Of a stretch of 37,591 nucleotides of DNA, positions 17,960-28,316 are shown piece by piece; within the stretch, counting starts at the first letter, position 1; every line of letters starts with the position of its first letter. The DNA is taken from positions 1 through 37,591 of the forward strand of contig JAUVAX010000022.1 of assembly GCA_030591685.1 (NCBI GenBank). The letters run 5' to 3'. Below the pieces are notes generated by a model. The model saw nothing but the letters and a program-made list of their open reading frames with translations. It had not been told where the DNA came from and ran no database searches. Made by a program: the position numbers and the translations under genes. The DNA comes from Pseudobdellovibrionaceae bacterium (GTDB taxonomy: Bacteria > Bdellovibrionota > Bdellovibrionia > Bdellovibrionales > UBA1609).

Positions 17960-19579
17960 TTAATGCCTTGAGCCGGGCCCTACGGGGTATCTTCTCGGTG
18001 TATTTGACGCCCTTGGGGGGCTAAAGATATTATGAAATTTAGTTTTTTTGCCCTTTTTATATTTTTCTAAGTCTTTGTTTTTATAACTCTCTAAAGCTTC
18101 GAGCATGGCCTGGTGATAAAAAAGAAGTCCTCCGTTTTGCTCGCGGTACTGTGACCCTAGCTGCTCTAGGTGATCTTGCATGAGGGTGCCGATCTCTTCA
18201 AGGATCACAATAGAGTCCATGGCTTTAACAGGTATGTTTTTAGGGAACTTATGTTTAAACCCTAAATCAGCAGCCCTAACGAGCTTACCAAACCTAGATT
18301 TTAGATTTTTAATAACGTTGGGTTTAAATTTATAGCCATCATTCTCCATCCACTCAAAAACCTTGGTTAAGATGGCGTCTTTATAGCGGATGTTTCTGAT
18401 TTTTCTGTAATCTCTCCACTCGGCAAGTAGTTCGAATTGAGAGTCTACGTCCATATCACCAGGGGCAAAAGTTTTAAACTGCTTAATGCCAAGGCGATGG
18501 GCTAAGTCATTAGTTAATGGTATTTGGCTCATAAAGGTAGGCATTTTAACTCCATATTTTATAAACCCCATATAAGCCATTTCTGAGCAAAAAACCTCGT
18601 CAGTGTCCTTTAATGACATTTTAAAATCGTAGGGGACATTATGGTTTACATCATCTTTTTTTAACCAGGGTTTCCACCATTTTTGGCTCTTTTTCATTTT
18701 TTTCGTTAAAACTTTATAACTGTATTGGGCCGCTTTGTGAGCTAACTCATGATCTGGGTACCTAAACTGTAAAACTCGGGCATTGCCATCGTCGAGGTAC
18801 TCTCTCATGGGCCTGATTGTCGAGCCTATTTCAATATGGGCTTCGAGGGCTAAAACATTATCCATGGTTCTGATTTCTTCAATAGTAAACTCAGCGCCAG
18901 GCTTTTCGCCAATAATATATATTAATGAGATATGGCTAAACTGGGTATCTACATCACCAATTCGCGCAATGGCGGCGCTGGTGATGGCGTTGCCTCGGCT
19001 CATAAATACGTCACCAGAACGAACTTTAACCTGGTCATTGCCAGGGGGTAGTAAAAGTTCAGGTGATACGCCTTCAAGAGTATTTAGCGTTTTGGGGTGT
19101 AAATCAGCAACATAAACTTCAGGGGCTATAAAGAGTTCACCTAAGTAGTCTTCGATATAACGTGTGGCACGAATGGCTGTTCGCATAGATTGTACACAAC
19201 CTAACAGCTCTTTATTTTTCAAATCATGTTGATGAGTTTTTACGAAATCACCTAACCGCTCTCTTAACATTAAGCGGCCCAACCAAATGGTGTTGATGAT
19301 TTCTAGGTAGTCGCCATTGACCTTGTCAAAGTTAAAAGCATGAGGGTCGACCTCAATAAGGTCTGAATAGAGTTTATTTAATATCACAGGGCACGATTTA
19401 ATGTTGAATTCTTCAGGGTTCGAAACTAACTGATAGTAATCTTGGGAGACCTTTAATAAGTCAATAGAGGGTTGGTGGCTACTCACAGCACTTTGAGGTT
19501 CAAATGCATAACTGGCTGTTGATTTAAATAACAGTAGCAAAACAAAAAAAGTATAAGTTATAAGCTTGTGTATTTGCAT
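17960..19579 (-). CDS. Exported YiiX-like permuted papain-fold hydrolase
   Basis: This 539-residue protein has a Sec signal at 1-25 (cleavage near SYA-F). The central part (about 185-350) matches the YiiX/YebB family of permuted NlpC/P60-type papain folds: VRSGDVFMSRGN opens the domain, the catalytic His is in QFSHISLI at about 215, and the catalytic Cys is in EVFCSEMAY at about 330. The permuted order, His before Cys, is the family feature. Characterised relatives hydrolyse amide or ester bonds in cell-wall peptides or lipids. The 130-residue N-terminal and 190-residue C-terminal extensions are unrecognised and helical; E. coli YiiX has only about 200 residues. The last residues are Arg/Pro-rich. 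It likely acts in the periplasm or is secreted. Confidence 0.8.
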   Translation of the reverse strand: MQIHKLITYTFFVLLLLFKSTASYAFEPQSAVSSHQPSIDLLKVSQDYYQLVSNPEEFNIKSCPVILNKLYSDLIEVDPHAFNFDKVNGDYLEIINTIWLGRLMLRERLGDFVKTHQHDLKNKELLGCVQSMRTAIRATRYIEDYLGELFIAPEVYVADLHPKTLNTLEGVSPELLLPPGNDQVKVRSGDVFMSRGNAITSAAIARIGDVDTQFSHISLIYIIGEKPGAEFTIEEIRTMDNVLALEAHIEIGSTIRPMREYLDDGNARVLQFRYPDHELAHKAAQYSYKVLTKKMKKSQKWWKPWLKKDDVNHNVPYDFKMSLKDTDEVFCSEMAYMGFIKYGVKMPTFMSQIPLTNDLAHRLGIKQFKTFAPGDMDVDSQFELLAEWRDYRKIRNIRYKDAILTKVFEWMENDGYKFKPNVIKNLKSRFGKLVRAADLGFKHKFPKNIPVKAMDSIVILEEIGTLMQDHLEQLGSQYREQNGGLLFYHQAMLEALESYKNKDLEKYKKGKKTKFHNIFSPPRASNTPRRYPVGPGSRH

Positions 19580-19978: not shown

Positions 19979-20935
19979 ATGATTATTGAAAACTCAGTAA
20001 TTTCTGTCAGCAGTACATACCTAAATATTATGCTAACGCTATTTACAATACTTTGTTCGGCGACCTTAGTGAATGTACTTTTGTTATTCAAATCACCTAA
20101 AAATGAAACCTTTAAAAAAGTAAAAATCATAATTAAATCTTGGTGGATCATTGTAATCACAATACTTGTCGCCGGGGTGTTTGGTAAATATGGATTTTTA
20201 GTTTTATTTGGCGGACTAAGTATATTTAGTGTCCTTGAATATTTTAAAGTGACTAAAATTAAATTTTGTAAACAAGAGATGAAAGCCTTTCTAATTATCT
20301 CTATTTTGTTGCAATTAGTTTTAATTAATAATTACGCATTCACGCACTTTGCTGTTTTTCCTAGTATATATGCGATCCCAACAGTTTCGTTATTAATTTT
20401 CAGATCTAAAACGGGTCAAGATTTATCCCGGTACTTAGCTGTTTATTTGGGTGTGCTGCTTTTTACACACTATGTTTTATATTCAGTGGCTATTATTTAC
20501 TCAGGTCCAGAGTTACTGGGCAGCCAAGATAGTGCTTTTGTTTTATTTTTTCTACTCATCGGTTTAACTCAGTTAAATGATATATTTCAGTTTATTTTTG
20601 GTAAGTCTTTTGGGAGAGTAAAAATTGTACCTCATTTAAGCCCCAATAAAACAGAGGCTGGTTTTATTGGCGGGATAGTAGCTACAACTTTACTAGGTGG
20701 TTATACATTTAATTTTTTTTTAGGGATAGATTTTAATGTTTCTTTAGGCTTAGGGTTTTGTATTTCACTTTTTGGTATTTTTGGGGACTTGACCTTTTCT
20801 ACCGTTAAACGGCATTTAGGGATCAAAGATTTTAGCAGTGCTTTGCCAGGGCACGGTGGGTTACTTGATCGATTAGACAGCGTTATTTTTACTACTCCTG
20901 TTTTGTTTCATGTTATTAACTATTTTTTAAGGTGA
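19979..20935 (+). CDS. CdsA-family phosphatidate cytidylyltransferase (first copy)
   Basis: This 318-residue inner-membrane protein has about eight hydrophobic helices and the C-terminal signature of the CdsA family: SPNKTEAGFIGGI at about 222-234, GIFGDLTFSTVKRHLGIKDFSSALPGHGGLLDRLDS at about 265-300, with the DRLDS end. It activates phosphatidic acid with CTP to give CDP-diacylglycerol. The AGGAG at 19970-19974 supports the ATG. It is the first of three tightly packed genes (gaps of 6 bases and an overlap of 1 base) with an EmrE-like protein and a CDP-alcohol transferase, as in the YnbB/YnbA pairing of E. coli. A second CdsA-like gene lies at 33681-34604, so this copy is probably specialised. 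Confidence 0.88.
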   Translation: MIIENSVISVSSTYLNIMLTLFTILCSATLVNVLLLFKSPKNETFKKVKIIIKSWWIIVITILVAGVFGKYGFLVLFGGLSIFSVLEYFKVTKIKFCKQEMKAFLIISILLQLVLINNYAFTHFAVFPSIYAIPTVSLLIFRSKTGQDLSRYLAVYLGVLLFTHYVLYSVAIIYSGPELLGSQDSAFVLFFLLIGLTQLNDIFQFIFGKSFGRVKIVPHLSPNKTEAGFIGGIVATTLLGGYTFNFFLGIDFNVSLGLGFCISLFGIFGDLTFSTVKRHLGIKDFSSALPGHGGLLDRLDSVIFTTPVLFHVINYFLR

Positions 20936-20941
20936 TTGTTT

Positions 20942-21301
20942 ATGAAGGACCAATTAGTACCTATTTTACTCAACTTACTCGCAGCCCTGTTTGGTGGTTT
21001 AGGCCAGTACGCGTATAAAAAGGGCGGGTTACTATTAACAGAGGTTTCTATATTTAAAAATTACCACCTGTGGACAGGGGTTTTATTATTTATCTTTGTT
21101 ATGATTTTGTTTGTTATAGGCTACAAAATGGGTGGGCGAATCTCTGTAGTTTACCCTTTTTATGCAACCACGTTTATTTGGGGGGCTCTTATTGGATATT
21201 TTTGGGAGAACGAGCCTTTAAATTTAGGCATCATCGGTGGTACGTCATTAATTTTAGTAGGACTGGCAGTTATTGCCCAAAGCATTGCAAAGGTGTCTTA
21301 A
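20942..21301 (+). CDS. Small EmrE/DMT-like membrane protein
   Basis: This 119-residue protein has four hydrophobic helices (about 5-20, 35-55, 60-82, 92-112) and resembles half-length drug/metabolite transporter (SMR or EamA-half) proteins: GGLGQYAYKKGG in the first helix region, VVYPFYATTFIWGALIGYFW in the third, and a C-terminal helix GGTSLILVGLAVIAQS. Such proteins dimerise. The start is the ATG at 20942 with AAGGTG overlapping the upstream stop; its last base is the first base of the next start (TAATG). Because it sits between two lipid-synthesis genes it could translocate a lipid or head-group rather than a drug, as similar small proteins do for undecaprenyl-linked aminoarabinose. That is inference. 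Confidence 0.8.
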   Translation: MKDQLVPILLNLLAALFGGLGQYAYKKGGLLLTEVSIFKNYHLWTGVLLFIFVMILFVIGYKMGGRISVVYPFYATTFIWGALIGYFWENEPLNLGIIGGTSLILVGLAVIAQSIAKVS

Positions 21302-21939
21302 TGGATGATAGTCGTAGAGATGTAAAATCAAGAAATAATAATTTGTTTCACCGCCTCTCAAGGGGGCTCATTAGCATGGGGCTAATGCCTAACCACATCT
21401 CTTTGTTAAGTGTTTTATTTGCGGCCCTTGGAGCTTATGGGTTTTTATTAATCTCTCAAGGAAGTGTTCTTTTGGGTGCCATAGTTACTTTTGTGGGCAT
21501 TCAGTTTAGGCTTATTTGTAATCTCATAGATGGTTTAATGGCCGTTGAGGGCCAGCTCAGCTCTCCTCAAGGGGAGCTTTATAATGATGTACCTGACCGG
21601 TTTTCTGACTGGTTTCTTATTTTAGGCACCGGATTTGTAATACAAAGTTACCCTCAGGGGTGGAATATAGCTTGGGCGGCAGCAACTCTAGCTATTTTAA
21701 CAGCTTATATAAGAGTTTTAGGCGCCAGTCAGGATGTGGGGCATGACTTTGGGGGCCCTATGGCCAAGCAACACAGAATGGCAGTGTTAAATTTAGGGGT
21801 TATCGGCACCCTTGTTGAGCATGTTTTGTTCCCCGGGTCTTTAGGCATGAGCCTTTATGTATCTGTTTGTGTTATTTTAGTGGGCTCAGTTATTACTTGC
21901 GGCCTTAGACTTTTTAGAATTTCAAAAAAACTTTCGTAG
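21301..21939 (+). CDS. CDP-alcohol phosphatidyltransferase
   Basis: This 212-residue protein has about six membrane helices and the CDP-alcohol phosphotransferase motif. It reads LIDGLMAVEGQLSSPQGELYNDVPDRFSD at about 77-105, equivalent to D-x-x-D-G-x-x-A-R...G...D...D with the first Asp replaced (N-L-I-D-G), as in the YnbA-like subgroup. These enzymes exchange CMP on CDP-diacylglycerol for an alcohol head-group. The ATG at 21301 overlaps the preceding stop by one base, which rules out the longer upstream reading frame that runs out of phase through the EmrE-like gene. With the CdsA-like gene it completes a two-step route from phosphatidic acid to a phospholipid. The head-group is unknown. 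Confidence 0.87.
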   Translation: MDDSRRDVKSRNNNLFHRLSRGLISMGLMPNHISLLSVLFAALGAYGFLLISQGSVLLGAIVTFVGIQFRLICNLIDGLMAVEGQLSSPQGELYNDVPDRFSDWFLILGTGFVIQSYPQGWNIAWAAATLAILTAYIRVLGASQDVGHDFGGPMAKQHRMAVLNLGVIGTLVEHVLFPGSLGMSLYVSVCVILVGSVITCGLRLFRISKKLS

Positions 21940-22097: not shown

Positions 22098-25000
22098 ATG
22101 AGTTTACGGGGATTAATTTTAACTGGTGTCTTTTTGGCGTTAATCGCACAACAGTCCGAGGCCGCTAAGCCGCTACCAGATCATTTAAATGTGAATAAAT
22201 ATGAGGCCATTTATAAACAAGCTCGCGAGCGCTCAGGCGAGGCCCGTGATCGCGCTAACAACTCGAGGTTGCAAGTTGAGCAACTCGCAGGCGAAATCTC
22301 CGACAGGCAAAGAGATATCGAAAACTCTCAACAGAGTATTTACGAAAACGAAAACGAGATCACTCGCCTAAGGCGGGACATCCCTAGAATTGAGGACGAT
22401 ATATATAGTGCCGAACAACTTATCTCAAGGATGGTTTCGGATATTAAAGATAAAGAGTACCGATTAGCTGAAATACGAACACGGGCCAAGCGTTTAAAGC
22501 GTAAGAGAAGTCATTTAGAAGATGAGCGGCACGTGATTGCTGATGAGATAAATAACATACGTCCAAGATATAAAAAAATTAAAGCTAAGTATAATGAAAA
22601 GTCAAAAGAGCTGACCCGACTACAAAATCAAAAAGCCGCTACTAAACAGAGCATCCGTGACTCTCAAAGCAAAATAGAGAAAAACAAAAAAGACATTCAA
22701 ACTCTAAAGCAGAGCATTCCACTGATGAAGTCTGAAATCACACGACTGAAGCAAAAAGTATCAGAGCTTAAGTCTAATATGGCCCCCCTTAAGGCCTCAC
22801 TGAAGGAGACAGAAACTAAGGTTCACGCACAACAGGCCAACGTAAAGAGGGCGCTCAATAAAAAGAGTCAAAAAGAAAAGAGAGTTCAAGAGCTAAAGCC
22901 CCAAATGAGCCAAGTACAAAAAAAGATGGCTCAAGTGCAAAAAAAAATAAATGTAGCTCAATCTAAAGTTAACGCATCAAAGGCTAAGGTCGAACAGTCA
23001 AAAAAGCTAGTGAGTAATAGCCAGAGAAACATAGACGCAAAAACTGCTGAAATCGCGGTTTTAAAAGAGAGGCTAGATAACTTTGACAGTAAAACTCAAC
23101 AAATGCAAAAAAACCTCAGAGCTTTTAATGTAACCCTTAAAAAGCATCGAAACGAGTTTGACAGCTTAAAGAAAAAGAAAAACAAAACAGAGGCTGAAAA
23201 AAAGCGAGTCGGCGAGCTGTTAAGAGAAATAGTACAGCTTAATCAAAAAATCGCTAACGTCAAAAAGAGAATCAATCAAAGAGGTCAAAATAAGTCAAAA
23301 CTTCAAGCTCAATTAAAAAAATTAAACTCACAACTAGCTCCTATGAAATCCTTTTTAGAGCGGTTTAAAACAACTTTAGCCTTAAGGCAAAAAGAGCTCA
23401 GTGCTGCTGAGAGTGTACTTAATAATGAAAAAGAAAACTTACAAGCCGTTAAACGAGAGTCTAGAGGTGTGTTAGTTCAGTTTAAAAAAGCTAAGAGTGA
23501 ACTTTTGCAAGCGACAGAGAGTTACCGTACGGCTCAATCATTGTTAGACCAATTAAACTCAAGGGTGTTAACTATTAACGCCCAGATCGCATCAACAAAT
23601 AGTCAGATTTCAAAATCAAGGGCGGCTATTGAGTCAAAAGAGGCAAAAATCACACAAACTCAGGCGATGATCCCTAAATTAAAAAGTGAAATACAAAGTT
23701 TAAAACAAAGGCTGGCCGAGCTTAATGGGCAACTAACGACCCTAGAGGCACAAGTCATAATAGTTAAAAGTGAGGAGCAACAGTTAAGTCGTCGTTTAGC
23801 AGCTTTGCAGGTAAAGGTAGATGAAATAAAGTCGAGACTGCATTTAAAGGATAAAGACATTAGGGCTTTAGAGCAAAAATTAGATCGAGTACGAAGAAAC
23901 CGAAAGGTCGTTAAAGAGGAGATATTAGATTTAGATGATAAAATTTCATATAAATACGAGCAAGTAGACAGCATGAAAGAGGCGATTATACAAAACCGCT
24001 CTGAAATGTCCTCCCTTGCAAGGGACAACTCAAGCCTTTACCAAAAGATTACTTATGATAAAGAGTTATTAAGGGGGCAAGAGGCCGAGTTAGCACAAGT
24101 TAAAAATGAATACTATGAGCGAGAGTCCACGGCAAAAAACCTTGAGGGCAAAACACAGCTTGCAAAAAATAAACTTGATGAGGTTTCTGATCGATTTTTT
24201 GCCCTAGCTGATGCGGCGAGTGACTTTGGCTCAAGAGAGGGCGAAAACTCAGGAACCCCTAAGGGGTCGCATGAAGGCGAGCGCGTCGGGGACCCTGCGG
24301 GGGCTCAACAAGGACGTATCAAAGGTGAAGCCGAAGGACTCATTTTTGGGTTTAACAAAGGCAAAGAAGTGGGCTTTAGTGAGGGTCAAAGCAAAGGGTA
24401 CCAAAAAGGGCTCAATGCCCCTGAAAACTTTGATCGTGGGTACTCGCTGGGGTTAATAAGTGGTAAAAAGGCCGCTCTTGATGAGGCTGTCGCTATAAGT
24501 CGACCTAAAGGCTATAAAGTAAAAATGCAAGAGCTGTTGAGTCAGCTTCCGGCAAGAAGTACCTCTTTCCCCAATACTCTAGTTAATACTAGAGGGGTGT
24601 TGATGAGCTCTCTAGGGGGTGTGTCAGGGTCTTCAGATTTTCAAAAACCCTTGGCGTACATTAACAACACCTCTATCCCGTTAAATTTAGAGTTCAGTTC
24701 TTTTGAAGCGTCAGGGGCAGAGCAGGCTTGCGCTGAAGAAAAACCATCAAGTGTGGCCAAGCAAGTACTTTCTAGGTCGAGCGTGTGTAAGTACGAGTAC
24801 TCTGAGGTTAACGAGTACTGTATTAACGCCTACGAGGACTCTTATGAAAGAGCCTATGCAAGCAGTTACTCTAAAAGCTACAACCAAGCTTACATGCAAG
24901 CTTGTGTGCCCAGCTATGAAGTTGCTTTTAGTGAAAATGAAACCGTGAGGTACGATAAGGGCTATCAGACCACTTACTTACCTACGTTTAGAGAGTACGA

Positions 25001-25847
25001 AGCCATAGGTGCAAAAGAGGCCCAGGCAGGTGGTTTTAAAAAAGGCAAAGTAAAAGCTTTTAATGACAACATTGAGGCTTTTCGTAGCGAGCAATACACC
25101 TTAGGTGAAATAAGTGCAGTTAATGAGCTTAAAACAAGCCCTGTTGTGCGCTTAAAAGACGTTGAGTTTGTAAAGGTCACCGAGGGGCACAAAGGTCACT
25201 TTGTCCCCGGCGATACAATTAAACTCAACGCGACCATTGTTAACTATGGTGAGGTGGCTACTGAGCCGGGTCAGGTTAAAGTAAAAATCATACCCGTATC
25301 TACAAATGTCGAAGTACTTGAGGGGGCTGAGTGGGTGGATGTAGTCGGCCTTGATGGCGTAACGGTCTCAAAAGTATTAAACATTAAAATGGTTAAAATT
25401 AAAAAGGTCGGCACTTTATCTCCTATAGTGATTAAAGTACAAATGCTTAGAGGGGACAGTTTGATTGATGAAAAACAAGTCCAGTACTCAATGGAGCCCC
25501 ATGTGGTGTCAACGCTTTCAAAAACCAAAGGGTACACTCCAACACCTAAAGTAAATTGGACTCAAAGATTAAAGTTTTACTTTAAAAACTCAAGCAATCA
25601 AAACCCAAAAGAAAACTTAAACGTGACCCTATCAACCAAAGATATCCCGGCGGACTGGATTGATTTTAAAAAGAACAATCAAGTTATAAACTCTAGCAAG
25701 TTTGGCCCCGGTAAAACTCAAAAAGTTAAACTTTACTATAAAATCTTAAACAAAAAAGCAAAAGGTAAAGAAATCAAATTAGTTATCACGGTAAAGTATA
25801 AAGGTAATATTTCTTTTCAAAAGTATATAACCATTAAGCCAAGATAA
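22098..25847 (+). CDS. Giant exported coiled-coil protein with Gly- and Tyr-tetrad repeats
   Basis: This 1249-residue protein opens with a Sec signal (cleavage near SEA-A at 22-23). Residues 30-705 are almost unbroken coiled coil, rich in Lys, Gln, Glu and Ser, with few prolines. Residues 711-771 then carry 16 glycines at exact four-residue spacing, with further Gly at 781, 785 and 789. Residues 907-944 carry Tyr (or Cys/Phe) every four residues, eight times or more. From about 1010 two beta-sandwich segments follow: one CARDB-like (VPGDTIKLNATIVNYGEVATEPG) and one DUF11-like to the C-terminus. It looks like an extracytoplasmic fibre, tether or stalk with a C-terminal binding head. GGGGGAGAG precedes the ATG, and a sigma-54 promoter lies upstream. 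Function unknown; no homologue is recognised. Confidence 0.9.
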   Translation: MSLRGLILTGVFLALIAQQSEAAKPLPDHLNVNKYEAIYKQARERSGEARDRANNSRLQVEQLAGEISDRQRDIENSQQSIYENENEITRLRRDIPRIEDDIYSAEQLISRMVSDIKDKEYRLAEIRTRAKRLKRKRSHLEDERHVIADEINNIRPRYKKIKAKYNEKSKELTRLQNQKAATKQSIRDSQSKIEKNKKDIQTLKQSIPLMKSEITRLKQKVSELKSNMAPLKASLKETETKVHAQQANVKRALNKKSQKEKRVQELKPQMSQVQKKMAQVQKKINVAQSKVNASKAKVEQSKKLVSNSQRNIDAKTAEIAVLKERLDNFDSKTQQMQKNLRAFNVTLKKHRNEFDSLKKKKNKTEAEKKRVGELLREIVQLNQKIANVKKRINQRGQNKSKLQAQLKKLNSQLAPMKSFLERFKTTLALRQKELSAAESVLNNEKENLQAVKRESRGVLVQFKKAKSELLQATESYRTAQSLLDQLNSRVLTINAQIASTNSQISKSRAAIESKEAKITQTQAMIPKLKSEIQSLKQRLAELNGQLTTLEAQVIIVKSEEQQLSRRLAALQVKVDEIKSRLHLKDKDIRALEQKLDRVRRNRKVVKEEILDLDDKISYKYEQVDSMKEAIIQNRSEMSSLARDNSSLYQKITYDKELLRGQEAELAQVKNEYYERESTAKNLEGKTQLAKNKLDEVSDRFFALADAASDFGSREGENSGTPKGSHEGERVGDPAGAQQGRIKGEAEGLIFGFNKGKEVGFSEGQSKGYQKGLNAPENFDRGYSLGLISGKKAALDEAVAISRPKGYKVKMQELLSQLPARSTSFPNTLVNTRGVLMSSLGGVSGSSDFQKPLAYINNTSIPLNLEFSSFEASGAEQACAEEKPSSVAKQVLSRSSVCKYEYSEVNEYCINAYEDSYERAYASSYSKSYNQAYMQACVPSYEVAFSENETVRYDKGYQTTYLPTFREYEAIGAKEAQAGGFKKGKVKAFNDNIEAFRSEQYTLGEISAVNELKTSPVVRLKDVEFVKVTEGHKGHFVPGDTIKLNATIVNYGEVATEPGQVKVKIIPVSTNVEVLEGAEWVDVVGLDGVTVSKVLNIKMVKIKKVGTLSPIVIKVQMLRGDSLIDEKQVQYSMEPHVVSTLSKTKGYTPTPKVNWTQRLKFYFKNSSNQNPKENLNVTLSTKDIPADWIDFKKNNQVINSSKFGPGKTQKVKLYYKILNKKAKGKEIKLVITVKYKGNISFQKYITIKPR

Positions 25848-25861
25848 TTAATAAAAACTAT

Positions 25862-25895
25862 AAACTGCCGGGTCCATGCCCGGTGGTTTACTTTT
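25862..25895 (+). terminator. Probable terminator after the coiled-coil gene
   Basis: CCGGG (25868-25872) pairs with CCCGG (25879-25883) around a six-base loop, and the outer AAAC/GTTT bases can also pair past a two-base mismatch. A short T run (25892-25896) follows. Confidence 0.6.
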
Positions 25896-25972: not shown

Positions 25973-26947
25973 ATGAGACATGCAATTCTATTCCTACTCC
26001 TTGTTCAGGCGAGTTCAGCATTAGCTGATACAGAGGCTACTAATTGCACAAACTGCAATCACCCCAAGAGGGGTTTAGAAAAAATAATTTCATTTTATAG
26101 TGATGTCTATAAGGCTTTGACTAATGCCCCACGAAAGACCATCGAGTGTAAAAGTATAGATTTAAGTCAAAAACCCGCCTTAAAACAAAGAAAATACCTA
26201 CGTCAAGCTAGCGGTCAATTTTGTTCAGCCTTTGCTTTTGCGGATGTGCTTTCAAGTAATTTAGACACTCCAATATCTGCTATGGATATTATGTTTAGTG
26301 CAGCAGAGATAAAAGGATTAGAATCTGATAGCGAATTTATTTTAGCCAATTTTAAAATTGATCAAATTCAAGATGCAATCAATAAGCATGGTGTTTGTCC
26401 AGAAAATGAATTAAATGTACCTTATTGGGGAGGCATACAATCAGCAGATTTAATTGTTCCAACCCTGATTTCATTTAATATAGCTGTAAAAGAAGATAGT
26501 TCTGAGCACTTGAAGTATGGGTTGGAATCTGGTTTGTTTAGAAATTTATCTTTTTCAAAAGAGATAAAAAGTCTATCTAAAGAAAATTCAAATTTTTCTA
26601 GGTTTATGCTTAAACTAGCTCAAAAAAATTGCAAAGAAAAAAGAACTCACCCAAAGGTTCAAGCCTTAGGAACAGCTATGCCGTTTTTACGGCGTGAAAA
26701 ATTGAAATTTTTAGATAATCTAAGAGTGTCAATAAATAATGGCAAGGCCGTGGTTTTGGGCTTAAATTCTTCTGTACAAAATCACGCTGTTTCTTTAGTC
26801 GGAACAAGAAGCGTTAAAGGGAAGTGCGAATATATTATAAGAGACTCAGCCTCCTCTAAATTAAATACAATAGAGACTTATTCTGAAGAAGAAATGATGA
26901 ATATGGTGAGGTCATCATTTCAGGTATCAGTTATTTCAGGTCACTAA
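25973..26947 (+). CDS. Exported papain-like cysteine protease candidate
   Basis: This 324-residue protein has a short Sec signal (cleavage ALA-D at 18-19). The segment RQASGQFCSAFAFADVLSS places Gln78 six residues before Cys84, the same spacing as the oxyanion Gln and catalytic Cys of papain, with the helix SAFAFA after it. NHAVSLVG at 270-277 fits the catalytic His (His271), and YIIRDSAS follows where papain has the Asn strand, here with Asp. The two halves are separated by a helical insert of about 100 residues. Several other Cys (CTNC near the N-terminus, CPENE, NCKEK) suggest disulfides. It follows the coiled-coil gene after a terminator. It may cleave proteins outside the cytoplasm; activity is inferred from three motif residues only. 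Confidence 0.65.
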   Translation: MRHAILFLLLVQASSALADTEATNCTNCNHPKRGLEKIISFYSDVYKALTNAPRKTIECKSIDLSQKPALKQRKYLRQASGQFCSAFAFADVLSSNLDTPISAMDIMFSAAEIKGLESDSEFILANFKIDQIQDAINKHGVCPENELNVPYWGGIQSADLIVPTLISFNIAVKEDSSEHLKYGLESGLFRNLSFSKEIKSLSKENSNFSRFMLKLAQKNCKEKRTHPKVQALGTAMPFLRREKLKFLDNLRVSINNGKAVVLGLNSSVQNHAVSLVGTRSVKGKCEYIIRDSASSKLNTIETYSEEEMMNMVRSSFQVSVISGH

Positions 26948-27117: not shown

Positions 27118-27186
27118 ATCATGCCAGATCATGCTATAAAGCACATATTTTCATTGCATGATCTGGCATGATCTGTCATGATCTAA
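27118..27186. promoter_or_regulatory. Operator-like repeat array before the Fic gene
   Basis: A perfect 17-base inverted repeat (ATCATGCCAGATCATGC at 27118-27134 and its complement at 27156-27172) surrounds a 21-base spacer containing TATAAA at 27135. The right arm continues as three direct repeats of CATGATCTG with a 10-base period (27157, 27167 and 27177). The last copy ends only two bases before the likely start codon. This is the arrangement expected for cooperative binding of a regulator on one face of the helix. Confidence 0.7.
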
Positions 27187-27188
27187 AA

Positions 27189-28316
27189 ATGATGTCATTT
27201 CAAATAGATAAAGAGCTAACTAAGCGACTCATATCCCTTAATGAGACGTTTTCAGAGAAAAATGCCCAACTAGCGGAGCTCTCTCAGCGAGACCGAGAAA
27301 TGATCCATAAATATGCTTGGGTCAGCACAGTGGGAGCATCTACGCGCATAGAAAATGCAATCCTGACTGACTCCGAGGTAAATTGGCTGGATTCAGTTTT
27401 GGACAGTGATGGGAAAAAAACAGCTTTTGAGGCTCACAGAGAGCAAATAAAAGACAAGCTCTCTAATGATAAGGAGCGAAGCTCTGAAGAGGTCGCTGGG
27501 TGTCGTACTGTATTACTATTAATATATGAACAGGCTAAAAGTTATTTGCCCCTAAGTGAGTCGACGATTAAGGGTCTTCATAGTGAGCTTCTTAGGAGTT
27601 ACTCTAAGCCAGTCCTTGTAAAAGGCGATTATAAAAATCATCCAAACTCGGTCATCGAAGAAAACCACAACACCGGTGAGAAAAAAACCGTTTTTAAAAC
27701 GGCTGACCCTGGAGTTGAGTCAGAAATGGCAATGAGAGATCTTGTAGCTTGGTACAATGAGGCCATTAACGAAGAGCCATGGACACTAGCAGTAGCTTGT
27801 GAATTTGTTTTTCGATTTTTAGCAATTCATCCATTTCAAGACGGCAATGGTCGACTTGGGAGGGCGCTTTTAATAATGTCACTACTTCAGGCCTCGAATG
27901 AAAAATTAGCCAACGTAACTTACTATATGGCTATTGACCGTCATATTGAAAGGCATAAAGAGGAGTACTACATAGTATTGAACCAATGTTCTAACGGAGA
28001 GTTTTCAGCTGATTCTAATAAGTATAAAATTGAATATTTTCTGAATTTTATGATTAAAGTTTTAGAATCTTCTTTAAATGATATTGATTTTTATATTAAA
28101 CGGACAAAGTCCTATAAAAAGTTACCCGAGTCAGCGATAAAAGTTCTAGAGTGTTTTAATGAAATGCCAGAGGTTCGTTTGAAGCCAAAAAATATTCGAG
28201 AGGCAACTAATCTCCCCACTCGAACGGTGGCAAATGCTCTTCAAACTCTTTTAAAAACTGAATTTATCCAGCGCTACGGGCAGGGGTCGGCAACAAATTA
28301 TCAAATTTTATTTTGA
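27189..28316 (+). CDS. Fic-domain AMP-transferase (class II) with C-terminal winged helix
   Basis: This protein of about 375 residues carries the full Fic active-site motif HPFQDGNGRLGR near residue 213, which transfers AMP from ATP to a hydroxyl on a target protein. The N-terminal helix has STRIEN at about 51-56, the S-x-x-x-E-N inhibitory motif of class II Fic proteins, so it is auto-inhibited rather than paired with an antitoxin. The C-terminal 60 residues look like a winged helix (IREATNLPTRTVANALQTLL, then a GQGSATNYQ wing), a common arrangement in Fic proteins that may bind DNA. The start is uncertain: ATG at 27189 or 27192, since an upstream ATG at 27168 lies inside the repeat array; none has a ribosome-binding site. 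Targets are unknown. Confidence 0.9.
   Translation: MMSFQIDKELTKRLISLNETFSEKNAQLAELSQRDREMIHKYAWVSTVGASTRIENAILTDSEVNWLDSVLDSDGKKTAFEAHREQIKDKLSNDKERSSEEVAGCRTVLLLIYEQAKSYLPLSESTIKGLHSELLRSYSKPVLVKGDYKNHPNSVIEENHNTGEKKTVFKTADPGVESEMAMRDLVAWYNEAINEEPWTLAVACEFVFRFLAIHPFQDGNGRLGRALLIMSLLQASNEKLANVTYYMAIDRHIERHKEEYYIVLNQCSNGEFSADSNKYKIEYFLNFMIKVLESSLNDIDFYIKRTKSYKKLPESAIKVLECFNEMPEVRLKPKNIREATNLPTRTVANALQTLLKTEFIQRYGQGSATNYQILF

What the first reader, a model, noticed from the sequence alone, without database searches (positions are those of the whole stretch)
22098..25847. 1249-residue exported protein with 16 exactly spaced glycines and a Tyr tetrad
After nearly 680 residues of coiled coil, residues 711-771 have Gly at every fourth position, 16 times in a row, then again at 781, 785 and 789. 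Residues 907-944 have Tyr, with Cys and Phe substitutions, at the same four-residue step. Four-residue steps put the small and aromatic residues on one slowly winding stripe of a helix, as in GxxxG packing helices or the Yae1/FliH-type Gly repeats. Together with a signal peptide and C-terminal beta-sandwich domains this suggests an extracytoplasmic fibre or tether with two special packing segments.
Basis: partly seen in the sequence, partly recalled or inferred. Interest (0 to 1): 0.72.

Follow-up and report, generated by a model that had tools for sequence, protein, structure and literature searches.

The report
Exported rod protein with glycine-tyrosine zippers
A long secreted rod-shaped protein, found across a phylum that includes bacteria-hunting bacteria, carries two strictly conserved helix stripes, one of tiny residues and one of aromatic rings, that look built for unusually tight right-handed helix packing, a motif described so far mainly in a flagellar export protein and, in short form, in the human SMN protein.

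Summary
The ORF at 22098-25847 encodes 1249 residues: signal peptide, a heptad (period 3.50) coiled coil, 16 glycines at exact 4-residue steps (711-771, then 781/785/789), and an aromatic stripe at the same step (phase 908-964). Same-composition shuffles never came near it. The gene is a phylum-wide family in Bdellovibrionota, including Bacteriovorax. In 61 orthologues at about 20-30% identity to it, the 22 "Gly" slots are 97.8% Gly/Ala/Ser (19% in neighbouring columns). The seven core aromatic slots are 93% Tyr/Phe/His/Trp (4% in neighbouring columns). Residues 908-987 have no indel in any of the 61. A Cys pair capping the aromatic helix is conserved. The constraint is therefore small/aromatic size, not Gly or Tyr as such. 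A 4.0-residue period implies a right-handed supercoil of about 36-42 residues per turn, as in GASright pairs. Both segments read [aromatic]-x-x-[small], the register of the SMN "YG zipper". Best reading: an extracytoplasmic rod that switches from a left-handed coiled coil to a tight right-handed YG/GASright zipper and ends in two Ig-like domains. Who pairs with whom is unproven: structure prediction was uninformative and array lengths do not covary. Biological role unknown.

The parts
22098..22163 (+). Sec-type signal peptide, residues 1-22 (MSLRGLILTGVFLALIAQQSEA|AK); no lipobox Cys
   Evidence: read from translation; homologues also begin with signal-like N termini; not run through a signal-peptide predictor
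22173..22235 (+). conserved N-terminal motif of the mature protein, residues 26-46 (LPDHLNVNKYEAIYKQARERS); family pattern [LIV]P[DSN]x[IVL][DN]xxxY
   Evidence: same motif right after the signal peptide in homologues of several families
22215..24167 (+). heptad coiled coil, residues ~40-690 (period 3.50)
   Evidence: Fourier analysis; coiled-coil Pfam/NCBIfam models only, mostly below cut-off
24216..24410 (+). small-residue stripe 1, residues 707-771: A707 then 16 Gly at step 4
   Evidence: slots 97.8% G/A/S in 61 orthologues (with stripe 2)
24438..24488 (+). small-residue stripe 2, residues 781-797 (G781 G785 G789 A793 A797), after a nearly fixed 10-residue break
   Evidence: exactly 16 residues in 61 of 61 orthologues
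24489..24785 (+). variable linker, residues 798-896
   Evidence: 797-908 spans 74 to 149 residues in 53 orthologues; pLDDT 23-32 over most of it
24729..24731 (+). C878, proposed to pair with C936: the two are present together in the window protein and three nearest homologues and absent together in two others
   Evidence: disulfide inferred
24786..24821 (+). C897-xxx-Y901-...-C908, conserved Cys pair capping the aromatic helix (probable disulfide)
   Evidence: pattern C-x3-[YF]-x(5-12)-C in 52 of 72 homologues; 51 of 72 have exactly two Cys in all
24819..24989 (+). aromatic stripe, residues 908-964, step 4 (C Y Y Y Y Y Y C Y F E Y Y Y F), with a small residue often at i+3
   Evidence: slots 912-936 93% Y/F/H/W, 4% in other columns; 56 residues long in 61 of 61
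24903..24905 (+). C936, in phase with the aromatic stripe, proposed partner of C878
25008..25058 (+). small-residue stripe 3, residues 971-987 (G971 A975 G979 G983 A987)
   Evidence: fixed spacing in 61 of 61
25146..25844 (+). two Ig-like beta-sandwich domains, residues ~1017-1249
   Evidence: AF2 model strands 1017-1246; Foldseek to transglutaminase C-terminal barrels and integrin domains, fold level only
25861..25890 (+). strong intrinsic terminator (13-bp stem, T run) just after the stop: the gene closes its own transcription unit

Best explanation
An exported, disulfide-stapled structural rod. Shown: a 650-residue heptad coiled coil runs into a 90-residue segment with a stripe of Gly/Ala/Ser every fourth residue. 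A variable linker leads to a second segment with an aromatic stripe at the same step, then two Ig-like domains. Inferred: both segments are helices; a stripe of period 4.0 can only stay at an interface if helices wrap right-handed, about 40 residues per turn, crossing about 40 degrees with axes 6-6.6 A apart. That is the GxxxG/GASright arrangement, continued over many repeats. Aromatic rings sit on the backbone of small residues of the partner helix, as in the SMN YG zipper. So the rod changes from a left-handed to a much tighter right-handed supercoil at the Gly segment, giving a stiff, in-register junction that fixes oligomeric state and presents the Ig-like domains outside the inner membrane. 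The Gly segment most likely dimerises in parallel as a continuation of the coiled coil, with the aromatic helix packed against it. Function as envelope or surface tether/spacer is the least certain step.
For: 22 small slots 97.8% G/A/S in 61 orthologues, including eight weaker ones first missed by a Gly filter; other columns 19%. Aromatic slots 93% vs 4%; zero indels in 908-987 in 61 of 61 while the linker varies 74-149. Mean entropy 0.62 bits in small slots vs 2.98 elsewhere. Both stripes co-occur in 72 of 73 family proteins, always Gly first, also in members without the long coil (L144, L156). Crick geometry: period 4.0 gives a right-handed pitch of 50-60 A and 35-45 degrees crossing at 6-6.6 A. 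GxxxG pairs are right-handed (PMC8395321). [aromatic]-x-x-[small] register in both segments: x1 hydrophobic 0.35 vs 0.25, up to 0.91 at slot 767; small at i+3 0.55 vs 0.27/0.36. SMN: Y side chains pack on the i+3 Gly of the partner helix (PMC8287954). Cys pair and signal peptide support export to an oxidising compartment. AF2 calls parts of both stripes helical.
Against: AF2 confidence over the stripes is only about 25-60 with five-row alignments, so packing is not predicted. Array lengths of Gly and aromatic stripes do not covary once phylogeny is removed (independent contrasts r=0.03, p=0.80). Gly is a poor helix former; the first ten Gly slots have few hydrophobic residues at x1, so this part could be flexible unless partnered. 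No conserved gene neighbour reveals a role.
Confidence: 0.55

Rival explanations
1. Heterotypic zipper: the Gly stripe packs against the aromatic stripe (same chain or partner chain), rings filling the Gly groove, rather than Gly-on-Gly homodimerisation.
For: Both have the same unusual period 4.0, so they can share one right-handed supercoil. They co-occur in fixed order in 72 of 73 proteins. The first ten Gly slots have few hydrophobic residues at x1 while the aromatic stripe has about ten aromatic slots in a row. Clade means of array size tend to rise together.
Against: No length covariation after phylogenetic correction. FliH and Yae1/Lto1 Gly arrays are thought to pair without a separate Tyr stripe (PMC2674601, PMC4523923).
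Confidence: 0.35
2. The Gly stripe is a pure homodimer zipper as proposed for FliH, and the aromatic stripe is a separate ligand or partner binding face (for example binding glycan, peptidoglycan or a partner protein through the ring ladder).
For: FliH-like pattern AxxxG(xxxG)mxxxA (PMC2674601) matches A707...A797 here. The aromatic stripe is polar except for the ring column and the small i+3 column.
Against: An exposed ladder of about 14 aromatic residues without an indel in 80 residues is less typical than a packed core; identity Y/F/H is interchangeable, which a ligand site would tolerate less.
Confidence: 0.25
3. The Gly-rich region is a flexible, disordered hinge and the 4-residue spacing is a by-product of composition or repeat expansion.
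For: AF2 pLDDT about 25-60; one-residue length difference (63 vs 64) in 26 of 61 orthologues.
Against: No DNA repeat. Run of 16 vs shuffle maximum 7. Slots accept Ala and Ser but almost nothing larger, at large divergence.
Confidence: 0.08

Closest known systems
FliH / YscL glycine repeats (AxxxG(xxxG)mxxxA; Trost and Moore 2009, PMC2674601)
   Same: Long soluble GxxxG array capped by Ala; Tyr/Phe/Leu favoured at x1 and Glu at x3
   Different: FliH is a cytoplasmic export-ATPase partner with its own C-terminal domain; here exported, after a 650-residue coiled coil, with a separate aromatic stripe and Ig-like domains. NCBIfam FliH model 17.6 bits against a cut-off of 192
Yae1/Lto1 deca-GX3 (PF09811; Paul et al. 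2015, PMC4523923)
   Same: GX3 array; there it is needed for Yae1-Lto1 complex formation (mutagenesis)
   Different: The window protein falls below the Pfam cut-off (15.6 vs 27.5 bits); eukaryotic cytosolic Fe-S adaptors, no aromatic stripe
SMN YG box / YG zipper (PDB 4GLI, 4RG5; Gupta et al. 2021, PMC8287954)
   Same: YxxxYxxxY and GxxxGxxxG motifs at step 4, Y packing on the i+3 Gly of the partner helix
   Different: Three repeats interdigitated on one helix in SMN; here 22 small slots and about 14 aromatic slots on two separate segments, exported bacterial protein; no sequence homology found
GASright / glycine zipper transmembrane pairs
   Same: small-xxx-small, right-handed crossing
   Different: Those are short and in membranes; here about 90 residues long with polar surroundings, no transmembrane segment evident

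Membership tests
FliH/YscL | match to the curated FliH model including the C-terminal ATPase-binding domain | tested here: not met
   PRK13386 FliH 17.6 bits, cut-off 192, only over 751-816
FliH/YscL | cytoplasmic protein | tested here: not met
   signal peptide (by eye) and conserved Cys pair
FliH/YscL | AxxxG(xxxG)mxxxA glycine array | tested here: met
   A707-G711...G771, G781-G789-A793-A797; A at 793 and 797 in 52 of 53
Yae1/Lto1 (PF09811) | PF09811 above gathering score | tested here: not met
   window 15.6 bits vs 27.5; 15 of 20 homologues match at E<=0.1, best 9.6e-7
SMN YG zipper | Y-motif and G-motif interdigitated (YxxG) on the same helix | tested here: inconclusive
   YxxG register enriched in the second half of the Gly stripe and Yxx[small] in the aromatic stripe, but the strict columns are on separate segments
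SMN YG zipper | Y side chain packs on the i+3 Gly of the opposing helix | not testable with these tools
   needs a structure; AF2 low confidence
GASright / GxxxG right-handed helix pair | small residues at i, i+4, i+8 ... | tested here: met
   97.8% G/A/S over 22 slots in 61 orthologues
GASright / GxxxG right-handed helix pair | right-handed crossing about 40 degrees, axes <7 A apart | not testable with these tools
   geometrically required by period 4.0 if the stripe is an interface, not observed
canonical heptad coiled coil (N-terminal 650 residues) | hydrophobic period 3.5 | tested here: met
   3.50, power 42.6 vs shuffle 8.9

The most novel reading that the evidence does not exclude
A heterotypic glycine-tyrosine zipper: a stripe of about 20 small residues and a stripe of about 14 aromatic residues, on separate segments of one exported rod, wrap as a continuous right-handed two-helix supercoil of roughly 50-60 A pitch, a soluble packing mode far longer than the three-repeat SMN example, and its handedness switch from a heptad coiled coil sets the stiffness or twist of an envelope rod in Bdellovibrionota.
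Probability: 0.35. Interest if true: 0.8.

Novelty: new variant of a known kind. Interest (0 to 1): 0.6.

Why it matters
Long soluble GxxxG arrays were described as extremely rare outside FliH, and no structure of one was known when they were surveyed (PMC2674601). Here is a phylum-wide exported family in which such an array is nearly invariant in size class, next to an equally strict aromatic array. It gives many natural sequences, with probable Cys staples, from which to solve the structure of a continuous right-handed small-residue helix pair, and it points to an uncharacterised envelope rod in lineages that include predatory bacteria.

Tried and rejected
(1) Zipper prediction that Gly and aromatic array lengths covary: raw Spearman 0.34 vanished under independent contrasts (r=0.03). 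(2) Internal duplication of the Gly and aromatic halves: hhalign probability 27% over 10 columns, rejected. (4) Solved-structure search: the best matches of the profile are low-complexity Gly repeats, nothing matches the window alone. (5) Gene neighbourhood: no conserved neighbour apart from a subtilase-like gene in three relatives. (6) Genus g38: no match in 21 of 24 genomes. The G070 hit (L154) is NGNANG low complexity and was dropped; the weak hits in G056 and G068 were not inspected. (7) Selection bias: a Gly filter had dropped eight orthologues with more Ala/Ser; adding them lowered G/A/S only from 98.9 to 97.8%. (8) Plasmids and phages: no match. The first scan of the genome collection by peptide patterns found no relative, but is insensitive; distribution outside the phylum is therefore untested.

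Full report
Observation. The ORF at 22098-25847 (+) encodes 1249 residues. Gly stands at 711, 715... 771 (16 in a row) and at 781, 785, 789. The aromatic stripe is in phase 908: C908, Y912-Y932, C936, Y940, F944, then E948, then Y952, Y956, Y960, F964. In 20,000 shuffles of the same 110-residue segments the longest runs were 7 for both classes, against 16 and 10. No DNA tandem repeat lies under the stripes. Residues 40-690 have hydrophobic period 3.50 with power 42.6 against a shuffled 8.9. The two stripes have periods near 4.0 (3.94 and 3.99). Pfam and NCBIfam give coiled-coil models, mostly below cut-off, and nothing for the stripes or the C terminus above cut-off.

Family. In the window's own taxonomic family 6 of 36 genomes searched (own included) have a clear relative, and the wider order and phylum hold many more. 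Named relatives are Bacteriovorax and Halobacteriovorax records, in Bdellovibrionota (lineage; that such bacteria prey on others is general knowledge). Genus g38 lacks a verified one (the two weak hits in G056 and G068 were not inspected). I fetched about 70 full or nearly full proteins. Most complete ones begin with a signal-like peptide, and many carry right after it the motif [LIV]P[DSN]x[IVL][DN]xxxY. The order is then coiled coil, Gly stripe, linker, aromatic stripe, beta domains. Some members (L144, L156) lack the long coil but keep both stripes, so the pair of stripes is the core of the family. A Gly stripe is always N-terminal to the aromatic stripe (72 of 72 with both; one of 73 lacks an aromatic run of four).

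What is conserved. In the first seven-sequence alignment the invariant columns were already mostly the Gly slots. In 53 orthologues mean entropy is 0.62 bits in the small slots and 2.98 in the other columns of 707-797. Because my filter had asked for lag-4 Gly pairs, I added back eight orthologues it had dropped. Over 61 sequences the 22 slots are 97.8% Gly, Ala or Ser (66% Gly), against 19.3% in the remaining columns. Aromatic slots 912-936 are 93.2% Tyr, Phe, His or Trp, against 3.8%. Residues 908-987 are the same length in all 61, 781-797 too, while the 797-908 linker ranges from 74 to 149 in 53 of them. The 707-771 stretch is 64 residues in 35 and 63 in 26, so one single-residue slip is tolerated. 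The constraint is on side-chain size, which is what a packed interface demands. The window protein is the Gly-rich extreme (19 of 22 slots Gly, the rest Ala). Caveat: the set was gathered with profiles built on these segments, so members that lost the stripes altogether could have been missed.

Cysteines. A pair C-x3-[YF]-x(5-12)-C just before or at the start of the aromatic stripe occurs in 52 of 72, and 51 of 72 proteins have exactly two Cys. In the window protein and its three nearest relatives two further Cys (878, 936) appear together; two other relatives lack both. Disulfides are inferred, and fit export.

Geometry. For a stripe to remain at an interface with period 4.0 on helices of 3.60-3.65 residues per turn, the supercoil must be right-handed with 36-42 residues per turn. 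At axis distances of 6.0-6.6 A this gives a pitch of 50-60 A and a crossing angle of 35-45 degrees; a heptad gives a left-handed 11-27 degrees over 6.0-9.5 A. GxxxG pairs cross right-handed, for example 50 degrees in EphA1 (PMC8395321). So the rod should switch handedness where the coiled coil meets the Gly stripe. This is calculation, not observation.

Register. In the Gly stripe the residue after Gly (i-3 of the next Gly) is hydrophobic in 35% of cells against 25% at the other two positions, reaching 72-91% at slots 751, 755 and 767. In the aromatic stripe the i+3 position is small in 55% against 27% and 36%. Both are thus [aromatic]-x-x-[small]. In the SMN YG box each Y side chain packs on the main chain of the i+3 Gly of the opposing helix, with Gly face to face (PMC8287954). 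FliH arrays also favour Tyr/Phe at this position (PMC2674601). In Yae1/Lto1 the deca-GX3 glycines are needed for complex formation (PMC4523923).

Structure prediction. With five-row alignments AF2 makes parts of both stripes helical but at pLDDT about 25-60, so it neither supports nor refutes a packing. The C-terminal 230 residues form two Ig-like sandwiches at pLDDT mostly 55-80; Foldseek matches are to transglutaminase C-terminal barrels, integrins and other Ig-like folds with low TM-scores, so only the fold is claimed.

Mechanism. Shown: export-type architecture, heptad rod, two size-class stripes under strong selection, conserved Cys pair, Ig-like ends. Inferred: a tight right-handed helix pair through the small stripe, aromatic rings on small-residue backbone, stiff junction, display of the C-terminal domains outside the inner membrane. 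Unresolved: whether the small stripe pairs with itself, with the aromatic stripe, or both. The prediction that array lengths covary failed under independent contrasts. I lean to a parallel dimer continuing the coiled coil with the aromatic helix packed on it. No operon partner tells the role: a strong terminator-like site follows the gene at once, and neighbours differ between genomes.

Verdict. The interpretation as a helix-packing rod is well supported at sequence level and unproven structurally. New family, variant of a known packing kind.

Noticed in passing
window 25973-26947 (+): Exported 324-aa protein with papain-like motifs (GQFCSAFAFA ... NHAVSLVG ... IIRDS) but no convincing Pfam match; starts 126 bp after the rod gene, beyond a terminator-like site.
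   Followed up: partly
window 17960-19579 (-): Large protein with a permuted papain-like Peptidase_C92 (YiiX/YaeF) domain, weak Pfam score.
   Followed up: no
window 21070-21939 (+) beside 19979-20935 (+): Possible CDP-alcohol phosphatidyltransferase-like protein (motif DGLMA...GELYNDVPDRFSD, read by eye) next to a CdsA-like gene; Pfam did not call the former.
   Followed up: no
window 27168-28316 (+): Fic/DOC protein with a C-terminal winged-helix-like region.
   Followed up: no
L059 6582-10241 and 10442-14203: Two tandem paralogues of the rod protein in one genome of the same genus as the Bacteriovorax record.
   Followed up: partly
L054 12043-12708, L056 12244-12822, L063 11667-12437: In three relatives a small exported subtilase-like protein (LDSG ... 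GSSFS) lies directly after or overlaps the rod gene.
   Followed up: partly
L144, L156: Family members with Gly and aromatic stripes but no long coiled coil; L156 has a 29-slot Gly/Ala run.
   Followed up: partly
L154 (3.98-Mb single-contig genome of genus g38): 1207-aa exported protein with several hundred residues of NGNANGN/TDGHSDG low complexity; unrelated to the finding.
   Followed up: no
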